In this document: one piece after another, positions 29,380-46,742 of the stretch | How positions within the stretch are numbered: the first letter of the stretch is position 1 | Layout of the letters: the number at the start of each line of letters is the position of its first letter | DNA from: Paenibacillus sp. BIHB 4019 | Lineage (GTDB): Bacteria > Bacillota > Bacilli > Paenibacillales > Paenibacillaceae | NCBI RefSeq assembly: GCF_002741035.1 | Contig: NZ_CP016808.1 | Span: 5,752,501 to 5,816,500 of the forward strand | DNA length: 64,000 nt | Reading direction: 5' to 3' | Position numbers and translations under genes: made by a program | Notes under the pieces: model-generated | Database searches by the model: none | Told to the model about the DNA's origin: nothing | Seen by the model: the letters and a program-made list of their open reading frames with translations, nothing else

Positions 29380-29955
29380 TTACTCCTTGCGCAGTGTAAT
29401 GGCGTGTTTCTCGTCTCCGTCCCAAAAGGCAAGCTCGACGACTGCACCCGGTGCAAGCAACGGCTCGCAGCCTTTCAGGTCCAGGAAAGGCTCGCTTGCC
29501 ATCTGCTGCGTCTCCAGGCAAAACGCTGGATTTGCCGATGGGCTGCGCAAATCCTGATACACTCCCCGCTCCCGCGATGCCTCTATGATGGCAACATTGT
29601 AAAATTTGACGCTCTCGTCAGCGGAGCTTGCCACTTCCGAAAGCTCAGCAATCACAAACAACGCTTCGCGATGAGACCCCGATGCCAATAGCCACTTCGT
29701 TAACGCAAGCGCGTGAGCGAACGATAAGCAGCCGGAATGTCCGAACGCGAGAGGAAACAGGAGATGGAGTCCGAGCTCAGCTCGCAGCTTGGCACACGGC
29801 GCTTCCCACGCTGCTCCCGTCAATTGATGGCAATAGCAAAGCAGACTGGGCTTCCGTTCCGGCTCCTCCAGACTAAGTTGCACGAAGGCGGCAAGCGTTT
29901 CGTTGCTTACTGCCCTGCCGACATGGCGGATGGTCAAATAAATGTCAGGCTCCAT
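29380..29955 (-). CDS. Half-length ketosynthase-like protein of the thiolase fold
   Basis: A 191-residue protein. The segment LHLLFPLAFGHSGCLSFAHALALTKWLLASG resembles the region around the nucleophilic Cys helix of KAS III or thiolase-like enzymes (GCxSFxxAL), but the protein has no counterpart of the second half that normally carries the His and Asn of the active site. It overlaps the KAS III gene upstream by one base (TAATG), so the two are co-translated. It may be a non-catalytic or initiating partner. Function is inferred only from fold-like similarity. Confidence 0.6.
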   Translation of the reverse strand: MEPDIYLTIRHVGRAVSNETLAAFVQLSLEEPERKPSLLCYCHQLTGAAWEAPCAKLRAELGLHLLFPLAFGHSGCLSFAHALALTKWLLASGSHREALFVIAELSEVASSADESVKFYNVAIIEASRERGVYQDLRSPSANPAFCLETQQMASEPFLDLKGCEPLLAPGAVVELAFWDGDEKHAITLRKE

Positions 29956-30881
29956 TATCGCGCCTCCCCGCTCTCAAGCGGCACATACTGATGAAGCGCA
30001 CAGCCGTAGTACCCGCCAAATCCGATTGAAACAGTCAAATAATAGTCTCCCGGCTGCAGCAATCCGTCCTGAACGGAGCAGGCAACGCTGTGAAGGACAT
30101 CGACATTGTGCATGTGCCCGAATTCCGGCAGCGTCCCCCGATAGATTTTATCGGGAGTGCAGCCGATCGCCATCGCGATGCCAGTCCACTGTTCCATTCC
30201 GAGGTTCGTGCAATATACGGCGCAAATTTGTCCCAAATCTAGCGAAAACCGGCGCAGCAGCGTCCGGACAACGTGGCGGACACCAAGGTAAGACGTCGAG
30301 AAATACTGCCGCGACTGTTGGGAGGGTTGAGAGGAATCGTCGAATACGAAGCCGTCCGCTCTTATTTCCACACCGTACGTCGCATGGCCCCCTAGACTTG
30401 GCTCCGGCGTATACAGCGCGGAGCAAGCGCCGTCACCGAAAACCATGTACCGATTGACTCGTTCCGATGGCTTGCCGGCTTTGTCCGCCGTCACGAAGAG
30501 GATAGCCTCACCTTCTCGCACGAAGCTGGCATAAAACCGTTCTGCCAAATGCAAGGCAAGATGCACGGTGGAACAGCCGTATTCGCCGAGCTGAACGACC
30601 ATCGTGCGAATCAGGCCCATTTCACGCACAATACGCTGCACAGCTTGCCGGTGTACGCTTGCTTCGTTCGTGACGCTTGCCAACAAGACGGCCGATATGG
30701 TCAAGCTGCGATCCGCCGCCTGGCGGACGGCTGGCTCAATGACGCGCCTCGCCATTTCCTCGAAGCCAAGCTTCTTTTCGACCGGCACATATTGAAAGCC
30801 CTTGCTGGCATATTGTTGCGCTGTACCGGCAAAATCGACGCCAGCCTCCAGCCCTTGGCCGACTGCTTCTTCCACCGTCAT
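29955..30881 (-). CDS. KAS III-like (FabH-type) 3-oxoacyl-ACP synthase
   Basis: At least 308 residues. The nucleophile region is LGEYGCSTVHLALHLAERFY, and the second half has FGDGACSALYT and an HxxN-like stretch EFGHMHNVDVLHSVA, so the catalytic His/Asn geometry differs from housekeeping FabH (no GNTSAAS). KAS III enzymes join an acyl-CoA or acyl-ACP with a second unit; relatives in secondary metabolism also act as acyltransferases. The ATG at 30881 is the first standard start, but the frame stays open to 30971 and the added residues (FSLSGIYVYVPETK) look like the normal first strand of the family. An AAGGAGG site lies seven bases before an ATC codon at 30971, so the true start may be non-standard. 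Confidence 0.78.
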   Translation of the reverse strand: MTVEEAVGQGLEAGVDFAGTAQQYASKGFQYVPVEKKLGFEEMARRVIEPAVRQAADRSLTISAVLLASVTNEASVHRQAVQRIVREMGLIRTMVVQLGEYGCSTVHLALHLAERFYASFVREGEAILFVTADKAGKPSERVNRYMVFGDGACSALYTPEPSLGGHATYGVEIRADGFVFDDSSQPSQQSRQYFSTSYLGVRHVVRTLLRRFSLDLGQICAVYCTNLGMEQWTGIAMAIGCTPDKIYRGTLPEFGHMHNVDVLHSVACSVQDGLLQPGDYYLTVSIGFGGYYGCALHQYVPLESGEAR

Positions 30882-31129
30882 TTTAGTCTCCGGAACGTAT
30901 ACGTAGATACCGCTTAACGAAAAAATCGGATCTTTTAATAGCTTGTTAGGAACATCACGAATCAGATCGATCCCCCCGCCTCCTTTTTATCAGCTGCCCA
31001 ATTCCTTGGCGCCTCCCCAAGTTGCCTCGCCCCTGCAGCGGCATTCATTGCCTCCTATGGGCATACGGCTTCCTCCTGCTTTACTATGGGAATGAACTCG
31101 CTTTTAGCGGCTGGACTCACTTGTACACT

Positions 31130-31150
31130 GGCGGTTCGCGAAGAACCGCC
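31130..31150. repeat. GC-rich hairpin after the lipoprotein gene
   Basis: GGCGGTTC (31130-31137) pairs with GAACCGCC (31143-31150). It lacks a T-run, so it more likely protects the 3' end of the upstream sugar-transport message or attenuates transcription into the ketosynthase genes than stops it fully. The rest of 30972-31178 shows no gene. Confidence 0.5.
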
Positions 31151-31178
31151 CGCGCATCTATTGCATCCGTGTACTTAA

Positions 31179-32822
31179 CTATTTTTGATTAGCGATGTAA
31201 CGATCGTACGCTTCTTGCACATATCCGATAAACTCGGGCAGTCCCGCTTTTTCAAGCTCCTTTTTATAGGCGTCCCATTCCTTTTCAATGCCGCCATCAA
31301 TAATCCACTTTCTCCGGTTCGTGTCAATTAGTCCATAAACTTGAGGCGACAGAAGCGCCATTTTATCCGCCGTTTCTGCTTCGTAAAAAAGAGTATGAGG
31401 AATAAACGGATCATTAAAATGCTTATCCAAATACCCAACGGCTTTCATATCGTTCAAAATATCTTGTGCGTCCTGCGGATACTCAACCACCGTATCGTAG
31501 TAATCCGTCAAGATAGCAACGGGCGTATTTCCTTGAATCGTATTTCTCGCCCGCATATCGTTATAGGTATCTAGGCCGTCCTTTAACGTATCAAATACCA
31601 TAACGCCCTTCTCGTTCTTTTTATATTGGTAGCCGAGCGGTCCCCAGTTCGTCTGAACCGACCATTCGGGATCATACATTTTATCGACCCATGCAAGCAC
31701 CGCCGCAGGATTCTTGGTCTTGGTCGTCAACACGAATGATAGCGGATTGTGCATTTCAACCAAGTTTTCCCTGCCGCCATATTCGCCGCCCGGTCCCTTC
31801 AAATACGGAACGGGAACATAATCATGGGCTACCTTCTCGCCCGCGACATCGAGAACCGAAAAATGCACGACGGAACCTACTGTCACTACTTCGTTCCTCA
31901 GCTTGGCTTGAAGCTTTGGCCCATCCGTGATAGAGAACTCGGGATCAATGAGTCCCTCTTTGTACATTTCATGGAGATATTGAATGCCTGATTTGTAGGC
32001 TTCCGTCGAAGCGGTATTGAAAATCTTTCCGTTGCTGTCCAGGTCCATGCTGTCGCCGCGATCGACCTGTCCCCATAATCCGAAGAACTGGCCAAAATCG
32101 GCATTATTTCTCCATGAACCAATACCGGAATTGGCATTTTTGTTGGCAAGAGCCAGCCCGATTTCGTCTTTAATGCCATTCCCGTTCATGTCGTTCTCGA
32201 CAAATTTCTTTAACGTATCGCGATACTCGTCTATCGTCGTCGGCACGGGAAGATTCAATTTGTCCAGCCAAGGCTTATAGATAGAAAGAATCCCCTGATT
32301 CGTAATTAGGCCAAACATTTCTTCGATATACGGCAGCCCGTAAATATGTCCATCCGGCGCTGTAATTAACGCCCGATACTCGGGTCTTTTCTCCAAAACT
32401 TTAGAGAAATAGGGCATGTCGTCAATATAATCCTCGATCGGAAGGAAAATGCCCGACTTGACATTTTTCATCACTTTCCCGATGCTCATCGTACCTAAAA
32501 ACGCATCCGGCAAGTTGTTTCCAGCCAGCATCAGATTCACTTTCTCGTCGACGGATTCGTTAGGTATCTCTTCCCATTTGATTTTGACATTGGTCGGAGT
32601 CACCTCGCTATACTTCTTGAACCAAAGCATTTCTTCTACCGGCAAATTTCTGGGATCCTTGCCCCGTACGATCGTAATGCTCGTTGGTGCATTGGGATCC
32701 GTTGATTCGACTTCATTTGTCTGGTTATTGCTGTTTGCCGGGCTGCTCTCGGCGCAGCCTGCCAGCAAGCTGACGGATACGCAGCCGATTACAAAGGCTT
32801 TCGTCCATTGGGTTAATTTCAT
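31179..32822 (-). CDS. Extracellular substrate-binding lipoprotein, YtcQ/LipO type
   Basis: A 547-residue lipoprotein with signal peptide and lipobox SLLAGCAES, then an Asn/Thr-rich linker and a long SBP fold (NLMLAGNNLPDAFLG; NDMNGNGIKDEIGLALANK, a Ca-binding-like loop common in this class). It is downstream of an LplB/YtcP permease pair, completing an importer typical for complex oligosaccharides in Paenibacillus. Cargo is probably fructo-oligosaccharide given the GH32 neighbours, by inference. Confidence 0.92.
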   Translation of the reverse strand: MKLTQWTKAFVIGCVSVSLLAGCAESSPANSNNQTNEVESTDPNAPTSITIVRGKDPRNLPVEEMLWFKKYSEVTPTNVKIKWEEIPNESVDEKVNLMLAGNNLPDAFLGTMSIGKVMKNVKSGIFLPIEDYIDDMPYFSKVLEKRPEYRALITAPDGHIYGLPYIEEMFGLITNQGILSIYKPWLDKLNLPVPTTIDEYRDTLKKFVENDMNGNGIKDEIGLALANKNANSGIGSWRNNADFGQFFGLWGQVDRGDSMDLDSNGKIFNTASTEAYKSGIQYLHEMYKEGLIDPEFSITDGPKLQAKLRNEVVTVGSVVHFSVLDVAGEKVAHDYVPVPYLKGPGGEYGGRENLVEMHNPLSFVLTTKTKNPAAVLAWVDKMYDPEWSVQTNWGPLGYQYKKNEKGVMVFDTLKDGLDTYNDMRARNTIQGNTPVAILTDYYDTVVEYPQDAQDILNDMKAVGYLDKHFNDPFIPHTLFYEAETADKMALLSPQVYGLIDTNRRKWIIDGGIEKEWDAYKKELEKAGLPEFIGYVQEAYDRYIANQK

Positions 32823-32924
32823 AGTTTACAGACCTTCCCTTCGAATTTTTATTTGTGGTTTATTTCCCTTGCCGCTTGGCTTCCAAACCCTCCAGATCAC
32901 CTCCCCTAAAAAGTTTTGTGGCGA

Positions 32925-33809
32925 TTATCCCTTAATCGATCCGATCATGACGCCTTGCGTGAAATACTTTTGCAAAAACGGATAAACGATGAGCAGCGGC
33001 AAGCAAGCCACAACGATGACACCGTACTTGAGCTGCTCCGATATGCGCTGTTTCGCAGCAAGCGACATCGGATCAATAACCATGCGAGAACCCGCTTCAT
33101 TCATAATCAGCAGATTGCGGAGTATAACCTGCAATGGAAACTTCTCATTGCTTGTTAGATAGAGCATAGGCTCAAAGAAGGAATTCCAATGGCCGATGCC
33201 ATAAAAAAGCGCCATAACCGCGATGATGACCTTCGATAAGGGCAAAGCGATGGAGAAAAAGAATCGAAAGTCCGAGCATCCGTCCATGACCGACGCTTCC
33301 AGCAGCTCTTCCGGTATGTTGCTCTGGAAGTACGTTCGCGTAATGATGATATTCCAAACGGAGGCTGCCACTGGCAAAGTGATGGCCCAGACGGTATTAA
33401 GCATGCCGAGATTGGAAATGAGCAGATAGGTTGGAATGAGTCCTCCGCTAAAAAACATCGTGAAGGCAAATAACAGCATGATGGGCGTCTTGCCCGCAAG
33501 CCCTTTACGCGACAGCGCATAAGCACAAGGAATGGTAACAGCCAGATTAATGAAGGTTCCGATAAACGTATACATAATGGAATTGAGATAACCGTCCCAT
33601 AGCGGCTTGTAAGCGAATATTTTTTTGAAGCCGTCAAGATAGATCGATTCTGGGAAAAGGAGCAAACCGCCGCTGTTCACTTGATCGGGATCCGTGAAAG
33701 AAGCCAGAAACACGAAGTAAAGCGGATACAAAATAGCGATGGCAATGATGCTCATAATCGAATAATTAAACAGGTTAAATAATTTGTCGCCTTTGGATTG
33801 GCTTATCAC
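32925..33809 (-). CDS. ABC transporter permease, YtcP type
   Basis: About 294 residues, six membrane helices, EAA loop EELLEASVMDGCSDFRFFFSIALPLSK. I place the start at the GTG at 33809 because AAGGAG lies eight bases before it; the GTG three codons earlier sits on top of the ribosome site. It works with the LplB-type permease four genes' worth of frame upstream and the lipoprotein downstream. No ATPase is encoded with them. Confidence 0.9.
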   Translation of the reverse strand: MISQSKGDKLFNLFNYSIMSIIAIAILYPLYFVFLASFTDPDQVNSGGLLLFPESIYLDGFKKIFAYKPLWDGYLNSIMYTFIGTFINLAVTIPCAYALSRKGLAGKTPIMLLFAFTMFFSGGLIPTYLLISNLGMLNTVWAITLPVAASVWNIIITRTYFQSNIPEELLEASVMDGCSDFRFFFSIALPLSKVIIAVMALFYGIGHWNSFFEPMLYLTSNEKFPLQVILRNLLIMNEAGSRMVIDPMSLAAKQRISEQLKYGVIVVACLPLLIVYPFLQKYFTQGVMIGSIKG

Positions 33810-33821
33810 TTTACCCACTCC

Positions 33822-34730
33822 TTACCACAGACTGTTCTGGGTCAGTTTTTTGGAAATAAAATTCGTCACAATCAGCAATACAAAGTTGATGACGGAGTTA
33901 AACAAACCGATGGCAGTCGCCAAACTGTACTGCGAATTCAGAAGTCCCACCTTGTACACATAAGTCGAGATGATCTCCGATGCCGGCAAGTTCATTCCTT
34001 GCTGCATAAGAAATGCCTTTTCCCAGCCGACCGCCATGACGCTGCCGACGCCGAGAATGAGCAGAATCATAATGGTAGGCGTAATAGACGGGAGGTCGAT
34101 ATGCCATATCCTCCGTACGGTTGTGGCTCCGTCCACGGTGGCTACCTCGTGTAATTCGGGATTAACCCCGCTTAATGCCGCCAAATAGATGATGGCGCTA
34201 AAACCCATCGTCTGCCATACGCCAGAGGCGATGTATACGCTGCGGAACCATTCGGCCCGCGCCATGAAATTAACGGCGTCTCCGCCGAACATCGTAATGA
34301 GATTGTTCACGAAGCCCGTGCTTGGAGCCAAAAACACATTGAGCATCGATACGAGGACGACCGTGGAAATAAAATACGGCGCATAGGTAATGGTCTGCAC
34401 GAAGCGTTTGAATAGCTGCCTGCGAATTTGATTAAGCAGCAATGCGAATAAAATGGGAATAGGAAAGCCGATCAAAAGCGAAAAAACGCTAAGTTTTAAC
34501 GTGTTGACTACGACATTCGTAAATACATATGAATTAAAAAAGGTTTCAAAGTGCTTGAACCCTATCCAAGGGCTTCCCAATATTCCTTGAACCGGATTGA
34601 AATTTTTGAATGCAATGATGATGCCGTACATGGGAGCATATTGAAATAAGAAGAGATAGACTAAGGCTGGCAATAACAGCACATATAATTGCCAGCTTTT
34701 CATGACTTGCTTAGGCGCCAATTTATTCAT
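33822..34730 (-). CDS. ABC transporter permease, LplB type
   Basis: A 302-residue permease with six helices and EAA loop LHEVATVDGATTVRRIWHIDLPSIT. Its ribosome site GGAGG lies within the last codons of the methyltransferase gene (stop at 34739), only eight bases away. This ties the importer to the biosynthetic genes in one transcript and makes its translation depend on theirs. Confidence 0.92.
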   Translation of the reverse strand: MNKLAPKQVMKSWQLYVLLLPALVYLFLFQYAPMYGIIIAFKNFNPVQGILGSPWIGFKHFETFFNSYVFTNVVVNTLKLSVFSLLIGFPIPILFALLLNQIRRQLFKRFVQTITYAPYFISTVVLVSMLNVFLAPSTGFVNNLITMFGGDAVNFMARAEWFRSVYIASGVWQTMGFSAIIYLAALSGVNPELHEVATVDGATTVRRIWHIDLPSITPTIMILLILGVGSVMAVGWEKAFLMQQGMNLPASEIISTYVYKVGLLNSQYSLATAIGLFNSVINFVLLIVTNFISKKLTQNSLW

Positions 34731-34738
34731 GATAGCGG

Positions 34739-35689
34739 TTAGCCTCCAGTTCGTTTGTCATTCGGTTTGACGAGTCTTGCCAATTTATATTTGCGCGTGC
34801 CTTCTCGCATCTCGTCGTAAATTCTCGTTCCCGGCAGCCCGATCGACTCCAGCAAAGCGCCTTCCATTTCATGATCCCTTTGCAAAGTAGAATAGCGTCT
34901 ATTCCCCGTCAAATCGCTGGATAATAACACATTTTCCGTAATGTCCTTTTCGAACGCGAAGTCGAATCCAACACCTCGCAAATATTGCTCTCCCTCTTCA
35001 AATTTGGACAGGGGAAGATCGTCGGCATAAATGAACGTGCCGCCAGGCTTCAATACGCGGTACACCTCCTCGTAAAAGCGGTGCACATTAGGAAACAAAT
35101 CCGCGGCTTCAATCGTCAGCACAATATCGCAGGAAGCTGTGCCGATAGGCAGCAGCTCGGCGTCTCCGACAAAGAAGTAAGCGTTCTCATGACGGTTTCG
35201 ATTTTGGCAGAACAAGACGTTCACTTCGGTCAAATCCATACCTACGACGCTTTTGGGATGAAACTCCTTACAGAGCGCAGCCACGTTGCCGCCCCTGCCG
35301 CATGCGATTTCCAGCACGTCTTTGCCGGTAACGCCAGTGTCTCCGATCGCTTCCCGCAGCAGACGAACCGAGTTCCGGTGAACGGCATGCGCCTGAAGCT
35401 CTTCGCGTTCCTCTAAGTCCGCATATCCCCAATTCACGAATGTGGAGAAACGAGATAACCCGCTTGCTTCCAACGTCTCGTGTATCGAGGTAAACATCCG
35501 TTTAACGGAGTCCTTGTGCTCCGATTTTCGCTCGTCATCGAGCATCAATCGATAAGTTCTCCCTTCAACAGGATAATAAGAATGAAGACAGGCGGGGCAT
35601 ACCCACGATTCGACGCTGTCGTCCAATGCTGCCTTGCAACGGGGACATGCAGCTACAATGCCGGACATAGGCCAAATCCGGCTGCTCAT
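34739..35689 (-). CDS. SAM-dependent methyltransferase with N-terminal zinc ribbon (copy 2)
   Basis: A 316-residue protein. The first 45 residues hold a zinc ribbon (ACPRCKAALDDSVESWVCPACL). A Rossmann methyltransferase follows, with motif I VLEIACGRGGNVAALC, the acidic residue of motif II VVGMDLTEVNV, and the post-motif VYRVLKPGGTFIYADD. The start ATG overlaps the stop of its paralogue upstream (35686-35689). Two related methyltransferases in series suggest two methylation steps or a heterodimer. It is probably a tailoring enzyme of the embedded cluster; the acceptor is unknown. Confidence 0.85.
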   Translation of the reverse strand: MSSRIWPMSGIVAACPRCKAALDDSVESWVCPACLHSYYPVEGRTYRLMLDDERKSEHKDSVKRMFTSIHETLEASGLSRFSTFVNWGYADLEEREELQAHAVHRNSVRLLREAIGDTGVTGKDVLEIACGRGGNVAALCKEFHPKSVVGMDLTEVNVLFCQNRNRHENAYFFVGDAELLPIGTASCDIVLTIEAADLFPNVHRFYEEVYRVLKPGGTFIYADDLPLSKFEEGEQYLRGVGFDFAFEKDITENVLLSSDLTGNRRYSTLQRDHEMEGALLESIGLPGTRIYDEMREGTRKYKLARLVKPNDKRTGG

Positions 35690-36621
35690 GCCTCCCTATC
35701 TCCCTTGGTGAAATGCCAGATGTGAAACGTCCGTTTGCCTTGCTTCATCTCCTCGTACCTCTGAGTGCCAGGTGCTTCGAGCCATTCCAGCACTTCCTGC
35801 TCGCTTTCGAACGAACCTCGCAGCGCAGACATCCGATTGGCCAGCGCCTTTTCCCCCGCCTTCAGCACATTGGCTGTAATATCCCGGGAAGCAATCTGTG
35901 TGAATCCTAGCTCCTGAACAACCGCAATATTTTGCTGAAGGTCTGCTTCATCCATGACGTCGGCGTAGAGGAACAAGCCGCCAGGCTTCAATACGCGCCG
36001 CGTCTCTCGATAAAATTCGCTTATATCAGGGTACAAATGAGAGGACTCGATATTCAGTACGACGTCGAAAGCATCGTCTGCGAAGGGCAGCTGTTCTGCA
36101 TCCCCAACGACAAATGAGGCCTGAGCATATCGATTGTTTGCCGCGCAGAATGCAATATTGGATTCTGTCAAATCCAAGCCTACCACCTGTCCAGGTCCAT
36201 ATAACTTGCACAAGGCGCTAACGTTGCCGCCCCTGCCGCAGCTTACTTCCAGAATGTTTTTGCCTATGAGCTCGCATCCCTTGACTACTTCCGACAACAA
36301 ACGGATAAACAGCGCGTTCGCTCTACTGGCGTCCTTGTCGTCTTCTTCGTGTTCGAGAGGGGCATATCCCCAATTATTAAAGGTCGAAAATCGCGACAAG
36401 CCCTTATCCTCCAGCGATTGATTAATCGCGCTGAACGTCCGTTTAACCTCCTCTTTCTGCTTGCCTACGTTTCCCGATTGAAGCATGACGGGCTGGCCCG
36501 CGACTTTTTCGAAACGCAGCTCGCAAGCAGCGCATTCCAAGCGGTCTTGATAATCGGTAACATTGCCTTTGCATTTGGGACATGCTAGCGCAATCCCTGA
36601 TGTATGCCATTTGATGCTCAA
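35686..36621 (-). CDS. SAM-dependent methyltransferase with N-terminal zinc ribbon (copy 1)
   Basis: A 311-residue protein with TTG start after GGAGGAG. Same plan as the next gene: zinc ribbon (ACPKCKGNVTDYQDRLECAACE), a shared linker (LSRFSTFNNWGYAPLE), motif I ILEVSCGRGGNVSALC, VVGLDLTESNIAFC, and VLKPGGLFLYADV. The two copies are clearly paralogous and came from a duplication. Tandem retention and co-translation indicate that both are needed. Confidence 0.85.
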   Translation of the reverse strand: MSIKWHTSGIALACPKCKGNVTDYQDRLECAACELRFEKVAGQPVMLQSGNVGKQKEEVKRTFSAINQSLEDKGLSRFSTFNNWGYAPLEHEEDDKDASRANALFIRLLSEVVKGCELIGKNILEVSCGRGGNVSALCKLYGPGQVVGLDLTESNIAFCAANNRYAQASFVVGDAEQLPFADDAFDVVLNIESSHLYPDISEFYRETRRVLKPGGLFLYADVMDEADLQQNIAVVQELGFTQIASRDITANVLKAGEKALANRMSALRGSFESEQEVLEWLEAPGTQRYEEMKQGKRTFHIWHFTKGDREA

Positions 36622-36671: not shown

Positions 36672-37484
36672 TCAGCCGTTCGCGCTGCTATAGTTGCGTA
36701 TCGCCTTGTTCCACAACACCCGAACGCTAATCAAGAGAAGCACGGGCGCTGCGGCGCCCCACATCATCTGATCTATCCTTAAAGCGTTCATTGCAGCGAG
36801 TGGAGCGAAATTCGTAATGACAAGGAACGGCAGCACATATACACCGATTCGCTGGATCCATCTGCCGTAGATAGGCATCGGCATATTGTTGGCATCCCAG
36901 ATTGCGTAGAAAATGCTGGATAATCCGCCGGTATTCACAAACCAGAATGAAAGCAGCGCCGGAACGATCATTAGGCAATACGTGATTATGACGCCGATGC
37001 CAAGGAATAGCATATACAAGACGATAGAATACGCCGTGAGTGGGATCTCCATTGCGTTCCAGCCGATTGCCACCATTGCAACGCCTGCGACCACGTTCGG
37101 GATTGGCATGCCCAAATCCAAGTATCGGAGCGAAACGAGAAACTGCAGGGAGATCGGCTTCACAATCATCAGGTCGAGCGAACCGTTTCTTACGTACTCG
37201 GGCATGCGGACGAAATTCGTAAAGAACAGGCCAGAGTACACGCCAGTCATGATGGTGTACGTACCGACGAACATAAGCATGCCATCAGGGGTAATGCCGT
37301 CAATATGCAGATCTGTTTTGTACACAACCACAACGTAAAGCAGCTTCGAAATCAGATAGGCTAGCTCCACCGCCAAGCCAAGCACGAAGTTCGCGCGATA
37401 TTCAAGCTGGGCAATCAAGCAGTTTTTGACGAATAGCCCATAAATGATCAAGTAGTTATTCAGCGTGCCGAGCCGACCTTTCAA
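36672..37484 (-). CDS. ABC-2 family exporter permease (second subunit)
   Basis: A 270-residue membrane protein with six helices and no EAA loop, of the ABC-2 type that accompanies COG4586-like ATPases. TTG start after GGGGG within the end of the previous permease gene. Together with the genes at 37488 and 38281 it forms a three-gene exporter, the expected route out for the product of this cluster. Confidence 0.85.
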   Translation of the reverse strand: MKGRLGTLNNYLIIYGLFVKNCLIAQLEYRANFVLGLAVELAYLISKLLYVVVVYKTDLHIDGITPDGMLMFVGTYTIMTGVYSGLFFTNFVRMPEYVRNGSLDLMIVKPISLQFLVSLRYLDLGMPIPNVVAGVAMVAIGWNAMEIPLTAYSIVLYMLFLGIGVIITYCLMIVPALLSFWFVNTGGLSSIFYAIWDANNMPMPIYGRWIQRIGVYVLPFLVITNFAPLAAMNALRIDQMMWGAAAPVLLLISVRVLWNKAIRNYSSANG

Positions 37485-39276: not shown

Positions 39277-39283
39277 CCAGCGG

Positions 39284-40453
39284 TCACCTCCCGTAATGGT
39301 ACAGCAAGCCGCACCGGGAACAGACGGGCATCAGTCCGCATGATAGCAGCTCCCGATGGTTTCCGTACTTGTCGCCATGCCAGATCTCTTCAGGAGAAGC
39401 CTCGTGCAGACTCCCTACAACAAGCTCAGGGAAGAACTTGCATGGAGTCGCTTGCCCGTTCGGCAGCACGTCCATCCGCGTCGATATAGCCAGACATTTC
39501 GTCCGGTTCATTCCTGCTTGCGGCTCCCCTCTAATGAAGCTATCCACTTCATTCTCCTCAAGCGCAGGCATAAATCGAACGCGGCTCGCCCATACCTGTT
39601 GCGAGATTCGGCGGACTTCTTCTTTCAAAGCCTCGATTCGATCCGGAGTAATACGGTATGTGAACGAATGCCAACTGCAACTGCCCATCCTTATGGAATC
39701 CAGCCACTCCATGCGCCTGGCGTAGAAGTCATCCATCGACGAGGCCGATTCAGGAGAAATGTACCAGGGATAGACGAGATAGATGGAGTCAACGCCCATT
39801 TCTGAAAAGTGCTTAATAAAGTCAAAGAGCTTTGGTATCATATTGTCGTTCATCGTCAAACTAACGGAAACACGGCCCTTGTATATTTGTTTCCGTTGTA
39901 GTTCCAGAAGCGTCTCGATGGCCGATACGACCTTCCGCCAGGTTCCCTTCCCGCGGATTTTATCATTTTCAATTTCGAATCCTTCCAGACTGGCCAATAC
40001 AACAAGCCCTTCGCCGATCTTCAATAGCGAGTCTAGCTTCTGCTCCAGCAACACCGCGTTGGTACAGATCGTCGTCGTCCTCTGGTCCGCTTCCAGCATA
40101 TTTGCTATTTCATCGAACCGGCTGTAATAGAGCGGCTCTCCTCCCCACAAATACACCTTTGATTTTTTGGGCTTTGTGAAGGCGAGCAGACGTTCAACCA
40201 ACACCGGATCAATCTCCCTGACCTGCTCCGATTTTTCCATGTTCCAATGAAATCCGTCTTCGTTCCACTCGTAGCAATGCTTGCACCTCAGATTGCATCC
40301 GTTGTTCAGCTTAATTCCAATGTCCTCCGGTATATCGAGCGCATAGCGTGGATTATCCGCTATTCTGCGACTCGCCCGGGACATGTTCATAATCGTGCGT
40401 TTCATGTCACTGAACAACTGCTCGTCAAACGTTCGATTCGTTTTCGGCTGCAT
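39284..40453 (-). CDS. Radical SAM enzyme with SPASM-type C-terminus
   Basis: About 389 residues from ATG 40453 (GGAGGG seven bases upstream). The radical SAM cluster motif is CNLRCKHC, followed by YLWGGEPLYY. The C-terminal part carries extra cysteines as in SPASM/twitch domains (CLAISTRMDVLPNGQATPCKFFPE; CGLMPVCSRCGLLYHYG) for auxiliary iron-sulfur clusters. This class modifies RiPP peptides or oxidises sugars and cyclitols (BtrN, AnSME-like). I find no short precursor peptide gene nearby, so a sugar or carrier-bound substrate is more likely here. The gene overlaps the glycosyltransferase gene by 29 bases. Confidence 0.88.
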   Translation of the reverse strand: MQPKTNRTFDEQLFSDMKRTIMNMSRASRRIADNPRYALDIPEDIGIKLNNGCNLRCKHCYEWNEDGFHWNMEKSEQVREIDPVLVERLLAFTKPKKSKVYLWGGEPLYYSRFDEIANMLEADQRTTTICTNAVLLEQKLDSLLKIGEGLVVLASLEGFEIENDKIRGKGTWRKVVSAIETLLELQRKQIYKGRVSVSLTMNDNMIPKLFDFIKHFSEMGVDSIYLVYPWYISPESASSMDDFYARRMEWLDSIRMGSCSWHSFTYRITPDRIEALKEEVRRISQQVWASRVRFMPALEENEVDSFIRGEPQAGMNRTKCLAISTRMDVLPNGQATPCKFFPELVVGSLHEASPEEIWHGDKYGNHRELLSCGLMPVCSRCGLLYHYGR

Positions 40454-41537
40454 ATAGATTCCCTCCATATTCAATCGTGCTCGCTCTTGCTTGGAGTAAG
40501 TTTTCGTGTATGCGGACAAGTGGTTCAAAGGCATATCCCTGAGTCTTCCAATCGTCGTACCAGATGCCGAGTCCCCGCTCGATCCAGTATCGTGCATTGC
40601 TTTCCTCATGCTTGGCGAAGGGCTCTAGAAAAATGAACGGCGTGGCTGATTCCAATGACTCGAATAGCGAGTAGCCGCCTGGTTTGCTAATGATCGCCAT
40701 GGAATTGCGGATAATATCAAACAGCGGCGGATAATCATCTCGCCGGGAATAAACGACGGGATAACCGGAGTCGATTCGCCCGAGCGGCGGAAAACCGTGA
40801 ACCCCTCGCCCATCCTTAAGCCACGGGCTCCAATTTGGATCGTTCATATAATAGCGGACGTTCTCGCTCATTTCGATATCGTTATCGAAATAAGCCAGTA
40901 CATTAAGCTGCATGCCGCCAGCGAGCATTTCCCGGCATGCTCGTTTATAAGTGCCGATTCCCCATCCGCCGCCATGAAGCGTGAAGCGCTGCTCGCGTTC
41001 CGCAAGCGGAATCGCAGATTGCTCCGTAATCGATAGAGTCATCGCCATCTGGCTGCAGGACGTGTCGAAGAAACGGATTTTTCGATAAAAGTCACCTATC
41101 AATTCGCGGTACACGACATAGGATACCGATATGCCTGCGTCCAGATGAAGCAAGTCAACCTTTAGGCCGCCAGAGCCATGACGTTCGCGATATTGATTCA
41201 GAACTGGCAGCCAAAATCCGGTTGTCGCGATAAACGAGTTTCGCCCTTCCCGCTCCCATTCATCGAGCAGCTGCTCCACCTTTAGCGGATCGAAGCTGCC
41301 GGAAATGTCATGGGCGAATTCGGCGCTTTTTTTAGCCAAGTTGAAGTCGTTGTGAAACGCTTTTCGGTAAGCCGGAACCTTATTTTTAATAGAATCCCTA
41401 TAGAAGTTTTCTAGGACGCATATTTCGGAGCGAATTCCCTGCGCGTCAAGCCGGCGCGATAATTGCACAGCCGGCACATAAGCGCCTAGCGAATTGCCCG
41501 ATCCCAGCAGCGTAACAACTCCCTTTGGATTATTCAT
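40425..41537 (-). CDS. MurG-like (GT28/GT1-type) glycosyltransferase
   Basis: About 370 residues from ATG 41537 (MNNPKGVVTLLGSGNSLGAY), with GAGG upstream. The N-terminal Gly-rich loop suggests a GT-B fold, and the C-terminal segment IISKPGGYSLFESLESATPFIFLEPFAKHEESNA matches the nucleotide-sugar pocket of MurG/UGT-like enzymes. It would attach a sugar, often GlcNAc in relatives, to the cluster scaffold. This fits the PIG-L deacetylase nearby, which commonly removes acetyl from GlcNAc. The assignment rests on the C-terminal motif. Confidence 0.72.
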   Translation of the reverse strand: MNNPKGVVTLLGSGNSLGAYVPAVQLSRRLDAQGIRSEICVLENFYRDSIKNKVPAYRKAFHNDFNLAKKSAEFAHDISGSFDPLKVEQLLDEWEREGRNSFIATTGFWLPVLNQYRERHGSGGLKVDLLHLDAGISVSYVVYRELIGDFYRKIRFFDTSCSQMAMTLSITEQSAIPLAEREQRFTLHGGGWGIGTYKRACREMLAGGMQLNVLAYFDNDIEMSENVRYYMNDPNWSPWLKDGRGVHGFPPLGRIDSGYPVVYSRRDDYPPLFDIIRNSMAIISKPGGYSLFESLESATPFIFLEPFAKHEESNARYWIERGLGIWYDDWKTQGYAFEPLVRIHENLLQARASTIEYGGNLYAAENESNV

Positions 41538-42807
41538 AGATTCGGGCACCTCGTTCTTGCAGGATCCGCTTCGCCTCGTCGTACAATCGTTCTCGCTCCC
41601 CGGTATCTTCGGCAATTACCGTTACATACAATCTTCCCTTATACCAATGGGCATCATCGCTTGGAATAGACGATTGAGCCGAAACCGCGGCGATGGATAG
41701 CGCTGCCGATGATAGAGGAATGATGCCGTCCCCTCGGCGGTTGGGGAACAATGCTTCGCGTCCTCGGAGTGCCAAAAGCAGATCCTCGTAGTCTATGATG
41801 TCGCGATAGCCGAATGAGATGAAGGTTAGCGCGCCTCTCCGCCGAAGCGTCCGGTCCAGCCGATGATTAATCAGCCCCATCGAAATGCGGGCATTAATCT
41901 CGACGACAGGCACCAATGTACCGTCCGCGAGCAGCATGGAGTCGACGCATACATGTCCGAAATAACCCGCTGTAGAGAGGCTGTCCGCTACAAGCTCCAT
42001 CGCATCAAAATAATCTCGCTTTTTTAAGGCTTCCCGGCCCTCTTCATCCATTGATCTGGAGCCGGCATATGCCAATTGGCGGTTGACCATTTCCTGTACG
42101 CCATGCCATTGAACAGAGCCGCCAGAGGATAATTCGAACTGGCAAGAGAAATCGCTCGCGACGTCGAGGAACGGCTCGAGAAGAAATCGGGTGACTTTGC
42201 CCCCTTCCTCCTGCTTCCGCAGGTACGCAACGACCGCGTCCAGGTTATAGGCGGAGCGGACAAGCAAATTCCCTTTGCCTGAGACCCCATAAGGATCCTT
42301 GATTAATATGGCGGCGTGATAACGGAGAAGCTCATGGCCTTGTACCGCCAAATCATCAGATCCATCTATCGGGTGGCTGAAGCTTGTCAGACCGAGCTTA
42401 TTTGACAAGCTGGCCGAATACAGCTTTGAATTGACCAGCCTAACCTTGTCGTACAGGGGCAGCTTCTCTTCCAAGCCAATCGAAGCGCAGAACTGCTGCG
42501 TATCGGCAAGGATGGAATAAGGCAATGCCCGACTGTACGATCTCAGCTTATCCGCCGTTTCGCTCACGCCGGCTGCGTGCGGCTCGAACGCAAAACCTAG
42601 CTTGCGCAAGTAGTACAATTGCGCCTCTTCGATCGGATACCGCGTAAGAAGGCCGTCTTGGGGGGCACACAAAGGAAACAGCAGCTCATCCATGCACGAC
42701 ACGATTAGCGATCGATCGAAATCCCTTATGGCCGGCAGCTTGCTGGATGCATCGTCCCTCCACAGCGACTCGGAGTCAAAAGTTCCGAACACGAGCGTTT
42801 TATCCAA
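41530..42807 (-). CDS. ATP-grasp ligase
   Basis: About 425 residues. The best start is TTG 42807, after GGAAGG, overlapping the ACP stop by eight bases. ATP-grasp features: ILIKDPYGVSGKGNLLVRS for the nucleotide loop and VPVVEINARISMGL with the metal-binding Glu/Asn. These ligases join a carboxylate to an amine, thiol or carrier. Sitting directly after an ACP gene it is the counterpart of BtrJ, which loads an amino acid on the ACP BtrI in butirosin synthesis. The substrate is unknown. The N-terminal 100 residues are of unclear fold. Confidence 0.8.
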   Translation of the reverse strand: MDKTLVFGTFDSESLWRDDASSKLPAIRDFDRSLIVSCMDELLFPLCAPQDGLLTRYPIEEAQLYYLRKLGFAFEPHAAGVSETADKLRSYSRALPYSILADTQQFCASIGLEEKLPLYDKVRLVNSKLYSASLSNKLGLTSFSHPIDGSDDLAVQGHELLRYHAAILIKDPYGVSGKGNLLVRSAYNLDAVVAYLRKQEEGGKVTRFLLEPFLDVASDFSCQFELSSGGSVQWHGVQEMVNRQLAYAGSRSMDEEGREALKKRDYFDAMELVADSLSTAGYFGHVCVDSMLLADGTLVPVVEINARISMGLINHRLDRTLRRRGALTFISFGYRDIIDYEDLLLALRGREALFPNRRGDGIIPLSSAALSIAAVSAQSSIPSDDAHWYKGRLYVTVIAEDTGERERLYDEAKRILQERGARIYE

Positions 42808-43048
42808 CTCGCGGTTCCATTCCTTCCAAAAAATGCATGAACGCCTCGACCGATAATAGATACTTGAAGTCGAGGTCCTCATATGAAATCTCGACCCGAA
42901 AAACGTCCTCGACCATGAGAATAAACTGAATCATTTGCAGGGAATCAATTCCGATTTCATTGATCAGGTCCGATTTCAACGTAATGGTATCTCGCAGCGT
43001 TTCGTCTTCTTTTACAGTTGCTAGAATGTCTTTTATTTTCTCGATCAT
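42800..43048 (-). CDS. Acyl carrier protein (ACP-1)
   Basis: An 82-residue carrier protein. The phosphopantetheine Ser lies in NEIGIDSLQMIQFILMVED (near residue 36), within a four-helix acidic protein. Start ATG after GGAGG. It leads the densely overlapping set ligase, glycosyltransferase, radical SAM, exporter, so the intermediate is probably carried on it during synthesis. Distinct from housekeeping AcpP, which has the DSLD motif. Confidence 0.92.
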   Translation of the reverse strand: MIEKIKDILATVKEDETLRDTITLKSDLINEIGIDSLQMIQFILMVEDVFRVEISYEDLDFKYLLSVEAFMHFLEGMEPRVG

Positions 43049-43070
43049 TGCGATTCCTCCAATTTTAAGA

Positions 43071-43098
43071 TTGGCATTTGAGAAAATTTAAATATAAT
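43071..43098 (+). promoter_or_regulatory. Sigma-A-type promoter of the PIG-L deacetylase gene
   Basis: TTGGCA at 43071-43076, 16-base spacer, perfect TATAAT at 43093-43098. It is in the divergent gap between the ACP-1 and deacetylase genes. AAAGGAG follows before the ATG at 43139. Confidence 0.75.
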
Positions 43099-43138
43099 AG
43101 AATTTAATTCATATTTTTCTAAAGGAGCTGCATCTGGT

Positions 43139-43927
43139 ATGAAGCATCTATTTCTATCTCCCCACCTGGACGACGCTGTCATTTCTTGCGGGGATTACAT
43201 CGATCACCTCGTCCAAACAGGCGATGCCGTGACCATCATGACGATTTATACGGGAGCGGCCGAACAGCTGTCCATGCTGGCCAAAATCATGCATAAGAAA
43301 TTCGGTCTGCGCGATCAGAATGTCATGGAAGTTCGGCTCCGCGAAGATCAAGAAGCGTGCTTCCTGCTTGGTGCCGACACCATACATATAGGTTTGCCGG
43401 AATGTCTCTACAGGGTTGATGAAGAGGGCCAACCGGTATACAGCAAGCTGCAGCAGCTGTTCGCAACCGCCACTTCCGCCGAACCTAGGGCTGGCAAGAT
43501 CATCCGCGCTGCGCTTTCCGATATGGACTTTTCGCCATACGACCGCATTTATATTCCTTTGGGCATCGGAAGGCATATCGATCATCTTCTTGTCCGGGAA
43601 GCAGCGGAATACATAACCGAGCAATCCGGGCAAGCTTTAAAGCTAATGTATTACCGTGATTTGCCGTACTTTTTTTACGGGACAGACCCTCATTGGAGGA
43701 GCGAGATCGCGCAAGGCATGCAGGAAATCCGTTTTACGCTTCCGGCCGTCTCACTCAGAAACAAGCTGTCCGCTATTGAACAATATGGCTCTCAGCTCCG
43801 TATGCTATGGACATCCCGGTTCCTCATGTTAAGACATATGGTTGTTCATGCTCGCTCTTTCGAGGACTCCCGCATGCGCATGCCGGAAGGGACGTACGCT
43901 TTCCCCCTATATACCCGGGCTCCGTGA
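43139..43927 (+). CDS. PIG-L family deacetylase
   Basis: A 262-residue zinc hydrolase. The PIG-L signature SPHLDDAVISCGDYI (metal ligands His, Asp, Asp) is at residues 7-22 and the second His in GIGRHIDHLLVRE near 145. PIG-L enzymes deacetylate GlcNAc units of small molecules and glycolipids (MshB, BshB, BtrD). It is the only plus-strand gene in the cluster, with its own promoter, and its end overlaps the end of the ACP-2 gene by 21 bases. It probably frees an amino group that receives the carrier-bound acyl chain. Confidence 0.92.
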   Translation: MKHLFLSPHLDDAVISCGDYIDHLVQTGDAVTIMTIYTGAAEQLSMLAKIMHKKFGLRDQNVMEVRLREDQEACFLLGADTIHIGLPECLYRVDEEGQPVYSKLQQLFATATSAEPRAGKIIRAALSDMDFSPYDRIYIPLGIGRHIDHLLVREAAEYITEQSGQALKLMYYRDLPYFFYGTDPHWRSEIAQGMQEIRFTLPAVSLRNKLSAIEQYGSQLRMLWTSRFLMLRHMVVHARSFEDSRMRMPEGTYAFPLYTRAP

Positions 43928-44200
43928 ACGTTCCTTTTCGTTGGCAAGCCTCCCTACCTCGCTTGCCAAGTCCCCAATCGTTGTCCACTTGCTGCCATGC
44001 CCAAGCAACTCGTCTGGCAAAATAATGTCATATTCCTTTTCTATCGCGACTACAAGCTCTATGACCCGTATCGATTCCAGCATCGGCCATAACAGCGAGA
44101 GCGGCAAATCTTGTTGAATGGTTTCTTTTACCTCTTCATTTTCAATCATGGATCGGATTTTATTAAGAATGGATTCGGTAATCGTTGCTATTTTGATCAT
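43907..44200 (-). CDS. Second acyl carrier protein-like protein (ACP-2)
   Basis: A 97-residue protein with an ACP plan: short helix 1, then a Ser motif MLESIRVIELVVAIEKEYDI at about residues 40-60, and a C-terminal helix TTIGDLASEVGRL. The usual Asp before the Ser is Glu, and Leu after it is Ile, so it is divergent, but the helix II spacing is right. Start ATG after GGAAGGGAG. It shares a transcript with the gene at 44241. Confidence 0.78.
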   Translation of the reverse strand: MIKIATITESILNKIRSMIENEEVKETIQQDLPLSLLWPMLESIRVIELVVAIEKEYDIILPDELLGHGSKWTTIGDLASEVGRLANEKERSRSPGI

Positions 44201-44240
44201 GGCTCAACTCCCTTCCTCCTTACGCTTTTTTCAGTTATGC

Positions 44241-45236
44241 TCACAGCATCCTCAGCATTGTAGTAAGCGTCTTTTTCTCCCGATCCGAAATTTCGCCGAG
44301 CAGCGTTCCAGCTTTTTTCATAAATTCGCGATTGCCGGCCACCCTTGCTTTGACGACTAGGTTCCTTGCCAGAAATGCCAAATTCGCTATGATTTCGTAT
44401 TCACCGTACAGCTCTTCATAATGATTCAGATATCCGTATTGCCCCATATATTCGATCCTTTTGAGCATAAGCTTCTTATGATCGTAAATGACGTGGAATG
44501 GTTTGTAGTCCGGTTCCCATTCGCCAGCTGCCGCCTTAATCGCGTCCTCCGCCAGCGCTTCGTACACATCTAACCCGAATGCGCATCGCCGATCGCTTCC
44601 GAGGCTGAAGCTGCTGGAGCAGGCCAGAAACTCCTGAATAAGTCTCCTCACGAGCTCGATGTTAAATTCGTAGCGGGCATCGCGAAAGCTGAAAAGTGCC
44701 ACGCCGCCGCGACCGCCCATTAGCCAATCCCATTCGTCGTTTACTGCTTCATAGGCCATTCTCAACTGTGCAAAAGACACTTTCTCGAATGAATACTTCC
44801 CTTTGAATGTAAAATCCGCAACATAAAAGACCTCTTCGTCCATGTCGTACCCATAAATAAACGTATCATGCTGAAAGTGGTCGATTCCGTCCAGAAAGAC
44901 GCTTTGTTCGACTACAGTGTAAATATAGTTGCCTCGATCGATACAGCCGCAAAAAAACGTTACAGGATCATCTGCGATCAAACGGACCGTCTCTCGCTTA
45001 AGCAACTGCTGGTATATCCATGGAGACAGATGAGGAAAGGTCCCGAATTCCACGGTCGGAGCGCGGTAAAACTCGATCTGGGAAGCCGTGGGATCGAAAG
45101 TCATTTGAAGCTGGATATAATTGCTCATGATCCACGGCGTGGACTGCGGATAATTGGACAGCACCGCTAATAGGTTGGCGTGCCATTGCCAAGACGTCAC
45201 ATCGGGATACTGCATAGGCAACACTTTCGCTACCAT
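44241..45236 (-). CDS. Unknown protein with a papain-like, BtrH-related look
   Basis: A 331-residue soluble protein. The stretch FQHDTFIYGYDMDEEVFYVADF (near residue 120) resembles the His-containing strand of BtrH_N / C39-like papain-fold proteins, which in butirosin move the acyl chain from ACP to the aminosugar. The expected N-terminal catalytic Cys is not obvious: the matching spot reads SWQWHANLLAVL, and cysteines occur only later (FFCGCIDRG). So the family call is tentative. It starts a few bases after a GH32 gene and precedes the ACP-2 gene by 40 bases, which fits a carrier-dependent acyltransferase. Confidence 0.5.
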   Translation of the reverse strand: MVAKVLPMQYPDVTSWQWHANLLAVLSNYPQSTPWIMSNYIQLQMTFDPTASQIEFYRAPTVEFGTFPHLSPWIYQQLLKRETVRLIADDPVTFFCGCIDRGNYIYTVVEQSVFLDGIDHFQHDTFIYGYDMDEEVFYVADFTFKGKYSFEKVSFAQLRMAYEAVNDEWDWLMGGRGGVALFSFRDARYEFNIELVRRLIQEFLACSSSFSLGSDRRCAFGLDVYEALAEDAIKAAAGEWEPDYKPFHVIYDHKKLMLKRIEYMGQYGYLNHYEELYGEYEIIANLAFLARNLVVKARVAGNREFMKKAGTLLGEISDREKKTLTTMLRML

Positions 45237-45242
45237 GAAACG

Positions 45243-46742
45243 TCAGCCCCCGCTTTCCAGATCCCACTTGTCTAAACTCAGCTCGCACTCTCCGTCCGAC
45301 TCGAACACGATCCCGGTGCTGTTGCCGGAGGGGTAGATGGTGGCGCTCATCGTACGTACACCACCATCCAAAAACACCTCGACGCTTGCACGATCGAGAA
45401 ATACCCGCAGCGATAAAACGCCATCGCGCAGTTCGATAGGTACGGAACGCTTGCCATTCACGCCTGCTTCTTCGGGAGGCGTAGATATGCTTCGACCGCT
45501 GTTCGAACGATCAAGCGTGAATGTCCCCTCAGCCGAATCGTAGTACAACCGTGTTTCTTCTTCCTCGCCTTTACGAACCTTCAGCCCAAATCGGGCTGCC
45601 TTCTTAGGTGTGAAAGAAATGAGCAGTTCCAGACAGTGACCTTCCACGCCTTCTGCCTTTGCTGTGCCATTTAGCAAAGTCTCGAATCGGATGTGATTTT
45701 TCCGATAAGCTTCAACTTCTCGTATCGGCTGCTGAATGAGACGGCTGCCTTCCACCTTCAATTCCCGGGGCAGCGTCATCATGCCGGACCATCCGTGTCC
45801 CCATTCATCCACTGGAATGGAACGCCCCCATGCTTGCATCCATCCAATGACAATTCTTCTGCCCTTGTCGTCGATAAGCGTTTGCGGGGCATAAAAGTCG
45901 AACCCGTAATCCAGTTCCTCGCTTGAAGAGGGCTGGAATTGCCCCGTCTCCCGGTTAAAGTCGCCGATCATATACATGACGGAATCCCGATTGTGATGGC
46001 GATACCCGTCTCTCTCCACGCCTTGAGGAGAAATAATCAGCACATGCCTGCCGTCCAGCGGGAAGAAATCAGGGCATTCCCACATATGGCCGAGGCTTGG
46101 GTTACCCTTCAGTAACAACCCCACATAGGTCCAATTCTTCAAATTCGCGGACCGATATAAAAGAATTTGCCCCACATGCTCCGCGGCACGACTTCCAATT
46201 ACCGCGTAATAGAAATCGCCATCCTTCCATAGCTTAGGATCTCTAAAATCCTGAGGCAATGCTCCTTCAGGCAGCTGATCAGAGGTCAATACTGGATTTT
46301 CAGCAATCTTGTCATATTGCATACCATCCCCGATAGCAATGCACTGGGTTTGCCTAGTCAACGAACCATCCTGCGAATGTGGTTGTACATGACCGGTATA
46401 CATGATGACATGTTTTCCATTATCCTCGATGGCGCTTCCCGAAAAACAACCGCTGATGTCGTATGCCTGATCCGGTGCAAGAGCGACGGGGAGATGACTC
46501 CATTCCATTAGATCCCTGCTTACCGCATGCCCCCAATGCATGGGGCCATTTTTCGAGCTGTAAGGATGATATTGATAAAATAAATGGTATTGGCCGTTGT
46601 AAAACGAACATCCATTCGGGTCATTGATCCAGCCGATTTCAGCGGAAAAGTGATAGGATGGTTTGTACTGTTCGTTTGCAGCATGTTTGTTCGCTTGAAT
46701 ATATTCGTTCGCGTTTTTCGTAGAGAAAGCCATAGTGTTCAC
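45243..46742 (-). CDS. GH32 sucrose-6-phosphate hydrolase/fructanase-type enzyme
   Basis: A 499-residue intracellular GH32 enzyme, a distant paralogue of the one at 27877. Motifs: nucleophile Asp in GWINDPNGCSF, FRDPKLW, acid/base Glu in MWECPDFFPL; C-terminal beta-sandwich present. GTG start at 46742; the ATG three codons later is also possible. It is the first gene of the long minus-strand run and is divergent from a LacI regulator, the usual arrangement for sucrose or fructan control. It leads into the biosynthetic genes without a terminator. Confidence 0.92.
   Translation of the reverse strand: MNTMAFSTKNANEYIQANKHAANEQYKPSYHFSAEIGWINDPNGCSFYNGQYHLFYQYHPYSSKNGPMHWGHAVSRDLMEWSHLPVALAPDQAYDISGCFSGSAIEDNGKHVIMYTGHVQPHSQDGSLTRQTQCIAIGDGMQYDKIAENPVLTSDQLPEGALPQDFRDPKLWKDGDFYYAVIGSRAAEHVGQILLYRSANLKNWTYVGLLLKGNPSLGHMWECPDFFPLDGRHVLIISPQGVERDGYRHHNRDSVMYMIGDFNRETGQFQPSSSEELDYGFDFYAPQTLIDDKGRRIVIGWMQAWGRSIPVDEWGHGWSGMMTLPRELKVEGSRLIQQPIREVEAYRKNHIRFETLLNGTAKAEGVEGHCLELLISFTPKKAARFGLKVRKGEEEETRLYYDSAEGTFTLDRSNSGRSISTPPEEAGVNGKRSVPIELRDGVLSLRVFLDRASVEVFLDGGVRTMSATIYPSGNSTGIVFESDGECELSLDKWDLESGG

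What the first reader, a model, noticed from the sequence alone, without database searches (positions are those of the whole stretch)
29380..46742. An unrecognised biosynthetic cluster built into a fructan-use locus
Between two GH32 genes lie two ACPs, an ATP-grasp ligase, a glycosyltransferase, a SPASM radical SAM enzyme, two methyltransferases, an ABC-2 exporter, a KAS III pair, a PIG-L deacetylase and a possible acyltransferase, mostly overlapping and on one strand. The mix does not match NRPS, PKS, RiPP or aminoglycoside clusters I know. The sugar importer is in the same run, so the product may be made from, or in response to, fructans; an imported sugar could even be a building block. The gene calls are read from motifs; the product is inference.
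Basis: partly seen in the sequence, partly recalled or inferred. Interest (0 to 1): 0.88.

Follow-up and report, generated by a model that had tools for sequence, protein, structure and literature searches.

The report
Exported-metabolite cluster inside fructan-use locus
A soil bacterium carries, in the middle of its genes for eating fructose-containing sugars, a conserved set of genes that probably builds and exports an unknown sugar-linked small molecule, and in several related lineages the same set also sits beside sugar-eating genes.

Summary
Between two GH32 genes (29380-46742) lie two carrier proteins, an ATP-grasp peptide-ligase relative, a GT-B glycosyltransferase, a SPASM radical SAM enzyme, an ABC-2 exporter, two methyltransferases, a KAS III relative with a half-length partner, a PIG-L deacetylase (opposite strand) and a CcbD/BtrH-fold protein. 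The block is heritable: 13 other genomes of the family keep it nearly complete in the same order. In all 13 the second methyltransferase runs straight into KAS III, so the importer inside the run is special to the window.

Tied to fructans? Partly. On the block's tree, 5 of 7 lineages adjoin sucrose/fructan genes (GH32 directly upstream in 4, ScrK-like kinase in 1); 6 of 15 testable loci, one clade, have no GH32 nearby. The GH32s are not one co-inherited gene. The wider core belongs to a GT family found in 146 of 394 family genomes; in a hand-picked control of 24 of these, 1 had GH32 near. So fructan linkage marks this subtype only.

Best reading: lincosamide/butirosin-like carrier-protein assembly of an exported sugar conjugate, wired into sucrose/fructan use. 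Product, substrates and regulation are inferred. Ten open-licence full-text searches found no description.

The parts
47211..48209 (+). LacI-family regulator, divergent from GH32a
   Evidence: Pfam LacI + Peripla_BP_3; NCBIfam hits all below cut-off, incl. D-fructose-responsive TF 120.6 bits vs 389.55
46878..46891 (.). perfect 14-nt palindrome TGAATACGTATTCA, possible LacI operator
   Evidence: sequence; only exact copy in the 7.25 Mb genome, two more with 1 mismatch
45243..46742 (-). GH32a, sucrose/fructan hydrolase, no signal peptide seen by eye
   Evidence: Pfam; NCBIfam scrB_fam 437 bits, above cut-off 356
44241..45236 (-). 331-aa CcbD/BtrH-fold protein; His123 and Asp141 kept, no Cys at the expected place (residues 16-17)
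43907..44200 (-). ACP1 (carrier protein, Ser43)
   Evidence: Pfam PP-binding E 2.6e-4; Ser invariant in 12 of 12 ACP rows
43139..43927 (+). PIG-L family de-N-acetylase, opposite strand
   Evidence: Pfam E 1.2e-13
42800..43048 (-). ACP2 (carrier protein, GIDSLQ)
   Evidence: Pfam PP-binding E 1.5e-6
41530..42807 (-). ATP-grasp ligase (start inferred, TTG)
   Evidence: profile to 8ynd ATP-grasp peptide ligase E 1.2e-16, also 8yi6 and PGM1; ATP-grasp-type residues invariant
40425..41540 (-). GT-B (GT28-like) glycosyltransferase (start inferred)
   Evidence: AF2 pLDDT 91 and Foldseek; profile to 9wde E 2.3e-7
39284..40465 (-). SPASM radical SAM enzyme (start inferred; first-ATG ORF starts at 40609, distant relatives align from about residue 50)
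   Evidence: Pfam Radical_SAM E 4e-21, SPASM E 8e-11; alignments
38281..39276 (-). exporter ATPase
   Evidence: Pfam ABC_tran
37488..38285 (-). exporter permease 1, ABC2_membrane_6 (start inferred)
36672..37484 (-). exporter permease 2, ABC2_membrane_6
35686..36621 (-). methyltransferase 1
   Evidence: Pfam Methyltransf_11 E 9.5e-23
34739..35689 (-). methyltransferase 2
   Evidence: Pfam Methyltransf_11 E 4.5e-18
33822..34730 (-). sugar importer permease 1 (inserted in the window lineage)
   Evidence: absent between MT2 and KS1 in 13 of 13 relatives
32925..33818 (-). sugar importer permease 2 (inserted in the window lineage)
   Evidence: as above
31179..32822 (-). sugar-binding lipoprotein SBP1 (inserted in the window lineage)
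   Evidence: as above
29955..30881 (-). KS1, KAS III relative: Cys103 kept; FabH His position is Thr225, Asn position is His256
29380..29955 (-). KS2, half-length KAS III-like partner
   Evidence: weak PF08545 E 0.031; conserved beside KS1 in 13 of 13
27877..29337 (-). GH32b
   Evidence: Pfam
26241..27830 (-). SBP2, solute-binding-like lipoprotein (read from sequence, no Pfam hit)
23437..26196 (-). sensor kinase
   Evidence: Pfam His_kinase
21930..23432 (-). AraC-type response regulator
   Evidence: Pfam

Best explanation
The block is a specialised-metabolite cluster that works on carrier proteins in the manner of lincosamide and butirosin assembly. The ATP-grasp enzyme charges a carrier with an amino or other acid (inferred). 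The GT and the PIG-L deacetylase make a free-amine sugar (inferred). The 331-aa CcbD/BtrH-fold protein, with ACP1, joins or positions acyl and amine parts without the usual Cys (inferred). Radical SAM, two methyltransferases and KS1/KS2 tailor the product, and the three-gene ABC-2 system exports it. In this lineage it is wired into a sucrose/fructan-use locus: GH32a heads the first run behind a possible LacI site, the importer ends the second, and GH32b-SBP2-sensor genes follow the third. So it is probably made while the cell feeds on fructosides, as a competition or signalling molecule. Shown: gene content, conservation, folds, neighbourhoods. Inferred: product, substrates, regulation.
Against: 6 of 15 testable loci (G112, G134, G202, G362, G338, G337) have no GH32 in the fetched flanks. 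Near GH32s are of several types. GH32 is frame-broken in G303 and a remnant in G327. G134 and G202 lack the exporter. The usual Cys of CcbD is missing in 50 of 50 family members at the inferred place. PIG-L breaks the run, so one joint transcript is not shown. If the fructan link is ancestral, lineages are not independent and the p-values overstate it. undercounts GH32 in rich genomes (G134: 3 there, 6).
Confidence: 0.57

Rival explanations
1. The biosynthetic block is a mobile metabolite cluster that landed in a fructan locus; the two share a place but no function or signal.
For: One clade keeps the block without GH32 nearby; near GH32s are not orthologous; the importer insertion was seen only in the window; G112's block groups with G362/G338/G337 (support 100 for the group) although G112 is of another genus, which suggests transfer.
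Against: 5 of 7 lineages adjoin sucrose/fructan genes, GH32 immediately upstream and co-directional in 4; the importer starts 8 bp behind MT2; 1 of 24 hand-picked control genomes of the wider class has GH32 within about 10 kb of the cluster.
Confidence: 0.26
2. The block makes or decorates a cell-surface glycan or glycolipid, and the fructan link reflects envelope or biofilm physiology.
For: GT profile hits processive diacylglycerol glucosyltransferase; methyltransferases resemble phthiotriol and fatty-acid methyltransferase models, all below cut-off; ABC-2 exporters also move glycolipids (general knowledge).
Against: 16 of 394 family genomes, plus one fragment, have it; two carrier proteins, an ATP-grasp peptide-ligase relative and a CcbD fold fit small-molecule assembly better.
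Confidence: 0.12
3. The genes degrade or detoxify an imported fructosyl conjugate rather than build a product.
For: GH32 without signal peptide, importer, deacetylase and local sugar regulators.
Against: Carrier proteins, ATP-grasp, GT, KAS III and an ABC-2 exporter are anabolic or export parts, and they stay together without an importer inside the block in 13 of 13 relatives.
Confidence: 0.05

Closest known systems
Lincosamide condensation system (CcbD/LmbD with carrier protein; celesticetin, lincomycin)
   Same: CcbD-fold protein beside a carrier protein; amino-sugar and mycothiol-type parts around an amide-forming step (PMC12945683 passages; PMC4351081 abstract)
   Different: No adenylation domain in the block, ATP-grasp instead; usual Cys absent
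Butirosin AHBA side-chain machinery (BtrI, BtrJ, BtrH)
   Same: ACP + ATP-grasp + BtrH_N-related protein; two wider-class loci carry a BtrH_N protein above cut-off (G003, G301) and one a PLP decarboxylase (G301). That BtrI/BtrJ are ACP/ATP-grasp is recalled
   Different: BtrH_N reached by only 5 of 50 relatives and not by the window protein; no decarboxylase found in the block
CtaG (closthioamide) and the AziU2-U3 complex (azinomycin)
   Same: Same fold; carrier-dependent action recalled
   Different: CtaG entries name Cys11 and His128 variants; the window protein has no Cys at that place
Sucrose/fructo-oligosaccharide utilisation loci (GH32, ABC importer, LacI, two-component system)
   Same: All these parts surround or enter the block
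   Different: Interrupted by a 14-gene biosynthetic block

Membership tests
Lincosamide synthetase | CcbD-type fold protein | tested here: met
Lincosamide synthetase | Cys-His-Glu catalytic triad | tested here: not met
   No Cys at residues 16-17 in 50 of 50 rows, one row has Cys at 15; His123 in 50 of 50. Register inferred from aligned ranges and helix start; realigning with two BtrH_N proteins did not settle it
Lincosamide synthetase | Stand-alone adenylation protein loading the carrier | tested here: not met
   No AMP-binding domain among block proteins
Butirosin side-chain system | BtrH_N protein | tested here: inconclusive
   Window protein no hit; 5 of 50 relatives E <= 0.01, best 1.4e-4
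Butirosin side-chain system | BtrK-like PLP decarboxylase in cluster | tested here: not met
   None in block; present in wider-class locus G301
Butirosin side-chain system | ATP-grasp ligase loads amino acid on ACP | not testable with these tools
   Family relation only
NRPS or PKS | Adenylation, condensation or type I KS/AT domains | tested here: not met
RiPP | Short precursor peptide gene | not tested
   Short ORFs were not examined for precursors
Cell-wall or spore core pathway | Near-universal in the family | tested here: not met
   GT at block-type similarity in 16 of 394 genomes plus one fragment
Canonical KAS III (FabH) | Cys-His-Asn triad | tested here: not met
   Profile alignment to FabH 2ebd: Cys aligned and kept; His position is Thr/Ser/Asn225, Asn position is His256
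Sucrose/fructan-use locus | GH32 hydrolase with importer and local regulator | tested here: met

The most novel reading that the evidence does not exclude
A widespread undescribed class of Paenibacillaceae natural-product clusters (carrier protein, ATP-grasp, GT-B transferase, SPASM radical SAM, ABC-2 exporter) builds glycosylated molecules on carrier proteins, here with a Cys-less CcbD-fold partner. One subtype has been lastingly or repeatedly coupled to fructan use, so that the bacterium makes a defensive or signalling sugar conjugate only while feeding on fructosides, perhaps from the imported sugar itself.
Probability: 0.33. Interest if true: 0.85.

Novelty: new variant of a known kind. 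Interest (0 to 1): 0.62.

Why it matters
If true, it would give a new family of exported sugar-linked metabolites with a ready inducer (sucrose, levan or inulin) for bringing a silent pathway on, and a case where sugar feeding and small-molecule production are linked by gene order. The GT that marks the wider core occurs in over a third of the held genomes of the family, without a described product that I could find.

Tried and rejected
NRPS, PKS or known aminoglycoside cluster: rejected, no such domains. Core cell-wall or spore pathway: rejected on distribution. GH32 as one gene co-inherited with the block: rejected, near GH32s fall in separate clades among 57 rows. LacI-type AANCGNTT and CcpA-type sites in the window: near chance (36 vs 28.7; 72 vs 61); GAATACGTATTC with up to 2 mismatches gave 8 sites vs 3.0 expected, reached in 2 of 100 shuffles. 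Promoter and terminator scans: near chance (25 vs 20.5; 18 vs 20.9). phmmer of the ATP-grasp and 331-aa proteins alone against PDB gave nothing firm (8ynd already led for ATP-grasp at E 0.011). Profile of the 331-aa family against PDB: no hit. Pfam on 33 GT relatives: EryCIII-like_C in 2, Glyco_tran_28_C in 1, DUF1314 in 1. Genome-contig scan with the GT: one locus, P. phyllosphaerae. Papers: listings (searches were on known relatives); passages of PMC12945683, PMC10318531, PMC2922099 and the abstract of PMC4351081 were read. No MIBiG or antiSMASH was at hand.

Rows dropped or limited: G340 (block-type GT fragment) was not fetched; G384's contig is too short for flanks and is not in the tree; G213 has a reduced block. 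Five further fetched loci found through the 331-aa protein (G236, G202b, G003, G172, G138) lack the block. Control genomes (24) and wider-class loci (23) were picked by hand's listing, plus P. phyllosphaerae. The GH32 tree used 57 rows from the window genome, 10 other block genomes and G394, not every hit. One search scored at most 5 candidates per genome; I tallied its column by hand.
Full report
WHAT IS THERE. The window is base 5752501-5816500 of a 7.25 Mb single-contig genome. In transcription order on the minus strand: GH32a, a 331-aa protein, ACP1, then PIG-L on the plus strand, then ACP2, ATP-grasp, GT, radical SAM, exporter ATPase and two ABC2_membrane_6 permeases, two methyltransferases, two importer permeases, a sugar-binding lipoprotein, KS1, KS2, GH32b, SBP2, sensor kinase, AraC-type regulator. 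Gaps run from -41 to +102 bp, with breaks at PIG-L and a 297-bp gap before KS1; several starts are inferred.

RELATIVES. A GT search of all 394 held genomes of the family gave 146 with E <= 1e-15. Sixteen, the window included, match at block level (E <= 2e-115); G340 holds a fragment. The other fifteen were fetched. Thirteen have the nearly complete block: G112, G093, G134, G202, G103, G195, G220, G362, G338, G337, G303, G327, G309. G134 and G202 lack the exporter; MT1 was not found in the fetched stretch in G195 and G309 and is moved in G220, G303 and G327; ACP1 and KS2 are present in 13 of 13. G213 is reduced (ACP2 to exporter) and G384 is cut by its contig. In 13 of 13, MT2 leads straight to KS1, so the importer trio inside the window's run was inserted in its lineage.

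IS IT TIED TO FRUCTANS? Testable loci: 15, window included. GH32 lies within 10 kb in 8: window, G093, G195, G220, G303 (frame-broken), G309, G327 (remnant), G213. In G093 and G213 there are GH32 genes on both sides. In G103 the next larger ORF after KS2 is a ROK kinase nearest the ScrK fructokinase model (309 bits, below its cut-off of 400), and a GH32 pair lies about 14 kb off. Six have no GH32 in the fetched flanks: G112, G134, G202, G362, G338, G337. Of these G134 has a PfkB sugar kinase nearby (nearest KDG kinase) and G202 a LacI-kinase-importer run about 2-10 kb downstream; I did not count them, because sugar importers are common in this family (general knowledge). The block tree (15 block rows, 5 outgroup rows) puts these six in one clade beside G103. 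Counting G134/G202 and G112/G362/G338/G337 apart gives seven lineages with window, G213, G103, G093 and the G195 group. GH32 is the direct upstream gene in four: window (6 bp), G093 (143 bp), the intact members of the G195 group (25-97 bp), G213 (630 bp, before ACP2). The chance of GH32 within 10 kb in four or more of seven is 2.4e-5 from GH32 counts per genome, if lineages are independent. They may not be: the tree also fits one ancestral link and one loss. The GH32 genes themselves fall in different clades: repeated recruitment or replacement. The cap undercounts both groups.

CONTROL: THE WIDER CLASS. In 23 fetched loci with more distant GTs (including a second one in this genome, L115, and P. 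phyllosphaerae, L035), ACP2 and radical SAM relatives are present in 23 of 23, an ATP-grasp relative in 22 of 23 (7 of them weak, 19-25%), the exporter trio in 19 of 23. Loci examined by Pfam add Gfo/Idh oxidoreductase, UDP-sugar dehydrogenase, nucleotidyltransferase, epimerase, methyltransferases, BtrH_N proteins and a PLP decarboxylase. Of 24 hand-picked wider-class genomes 11 have any GH32 at E <= 1e-10, and one (G007) has it within about 10 kb of the cluster. Several wider-class loci have sugar-import genes nearby (G341, G364, G391, G368, G202d), with no test against chance. A phylum sample of 398 genomes gave one hit outside the family (G702). So there is a broad class, and fructan linkage marks one subtype.

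REGULATION. Between the divergent LacI gene and GH32a lies TGAATACGTATTCA (46878-46891), the only exact copy in the genome. CG-centred palindromes suit LacI proteins (general knowledge). General LacI- and CcpA-type motif scans are near chance. A promoter-like pair lies in the PIG-L/ACP2 gap (where the overall count is near chance). One joint transcript is not shown; three runs, each starting or ending with sugar genes, fit better.

VERDICT. The cluster is real and, in the searches made, undescribed (open-licence PMC papers only). It resembles lincosamide and butirosin carrier-protein chemistry but fails defining tests of both, so it is filed with neither. The fructan link is better supported than one genome could show, yet it is neither universal nor proof of function.

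Noticed in passing
L115 (G000:C1:6930001-6950000): The same genome has a second cluster of the wider class, with two radical SAM enzymes, a Gfo/Idh oxidoreductase, a methyltransferase and a UDP-sugar dehydrogenase.
   Followed up: partly
44241-45236 family: The Cys-less CcbD-fold family is large: matches in 135 of 295 family genomes sampled, up to 8 in one genome, and relatives named from Lachnospiraceae assemblies.
   Followed up: partly
L036-L037 (G112) against L086-L091: G112 belongs to another genus, yet its block groups with G362, G338 and G337 on the tree, which suggests transfer.
   Followed up: no
L039 (G134) and L041-L042 (G202): The block has lost the three exporter genes in a lineage that also has no GH32 nearby.
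   Followed up: no
L093:821-2136: In G303 the ATP-grasp gene is split in two frames and the neighbouring GH32 is frame-broken too; the block may be decaying there.
   Followed up: no
L109:2872-3900 (G161): In a wider-class locus the KS2 relative beside KS1 is about 342 aa, so the block's KS2 may be a shrunken full-length partner.
   Followed up: no
40425-40609: The GT and radical SAM reading frames overlap; the radical SAM ORF stays open about 145 bases upstream of its likely start.
   Followed up: partly
19452-21845: A GH43 enzyme with 3-keto-disaccharide hydrolase-like domains follows the two-component genes on the same strand.
   Followed up: no
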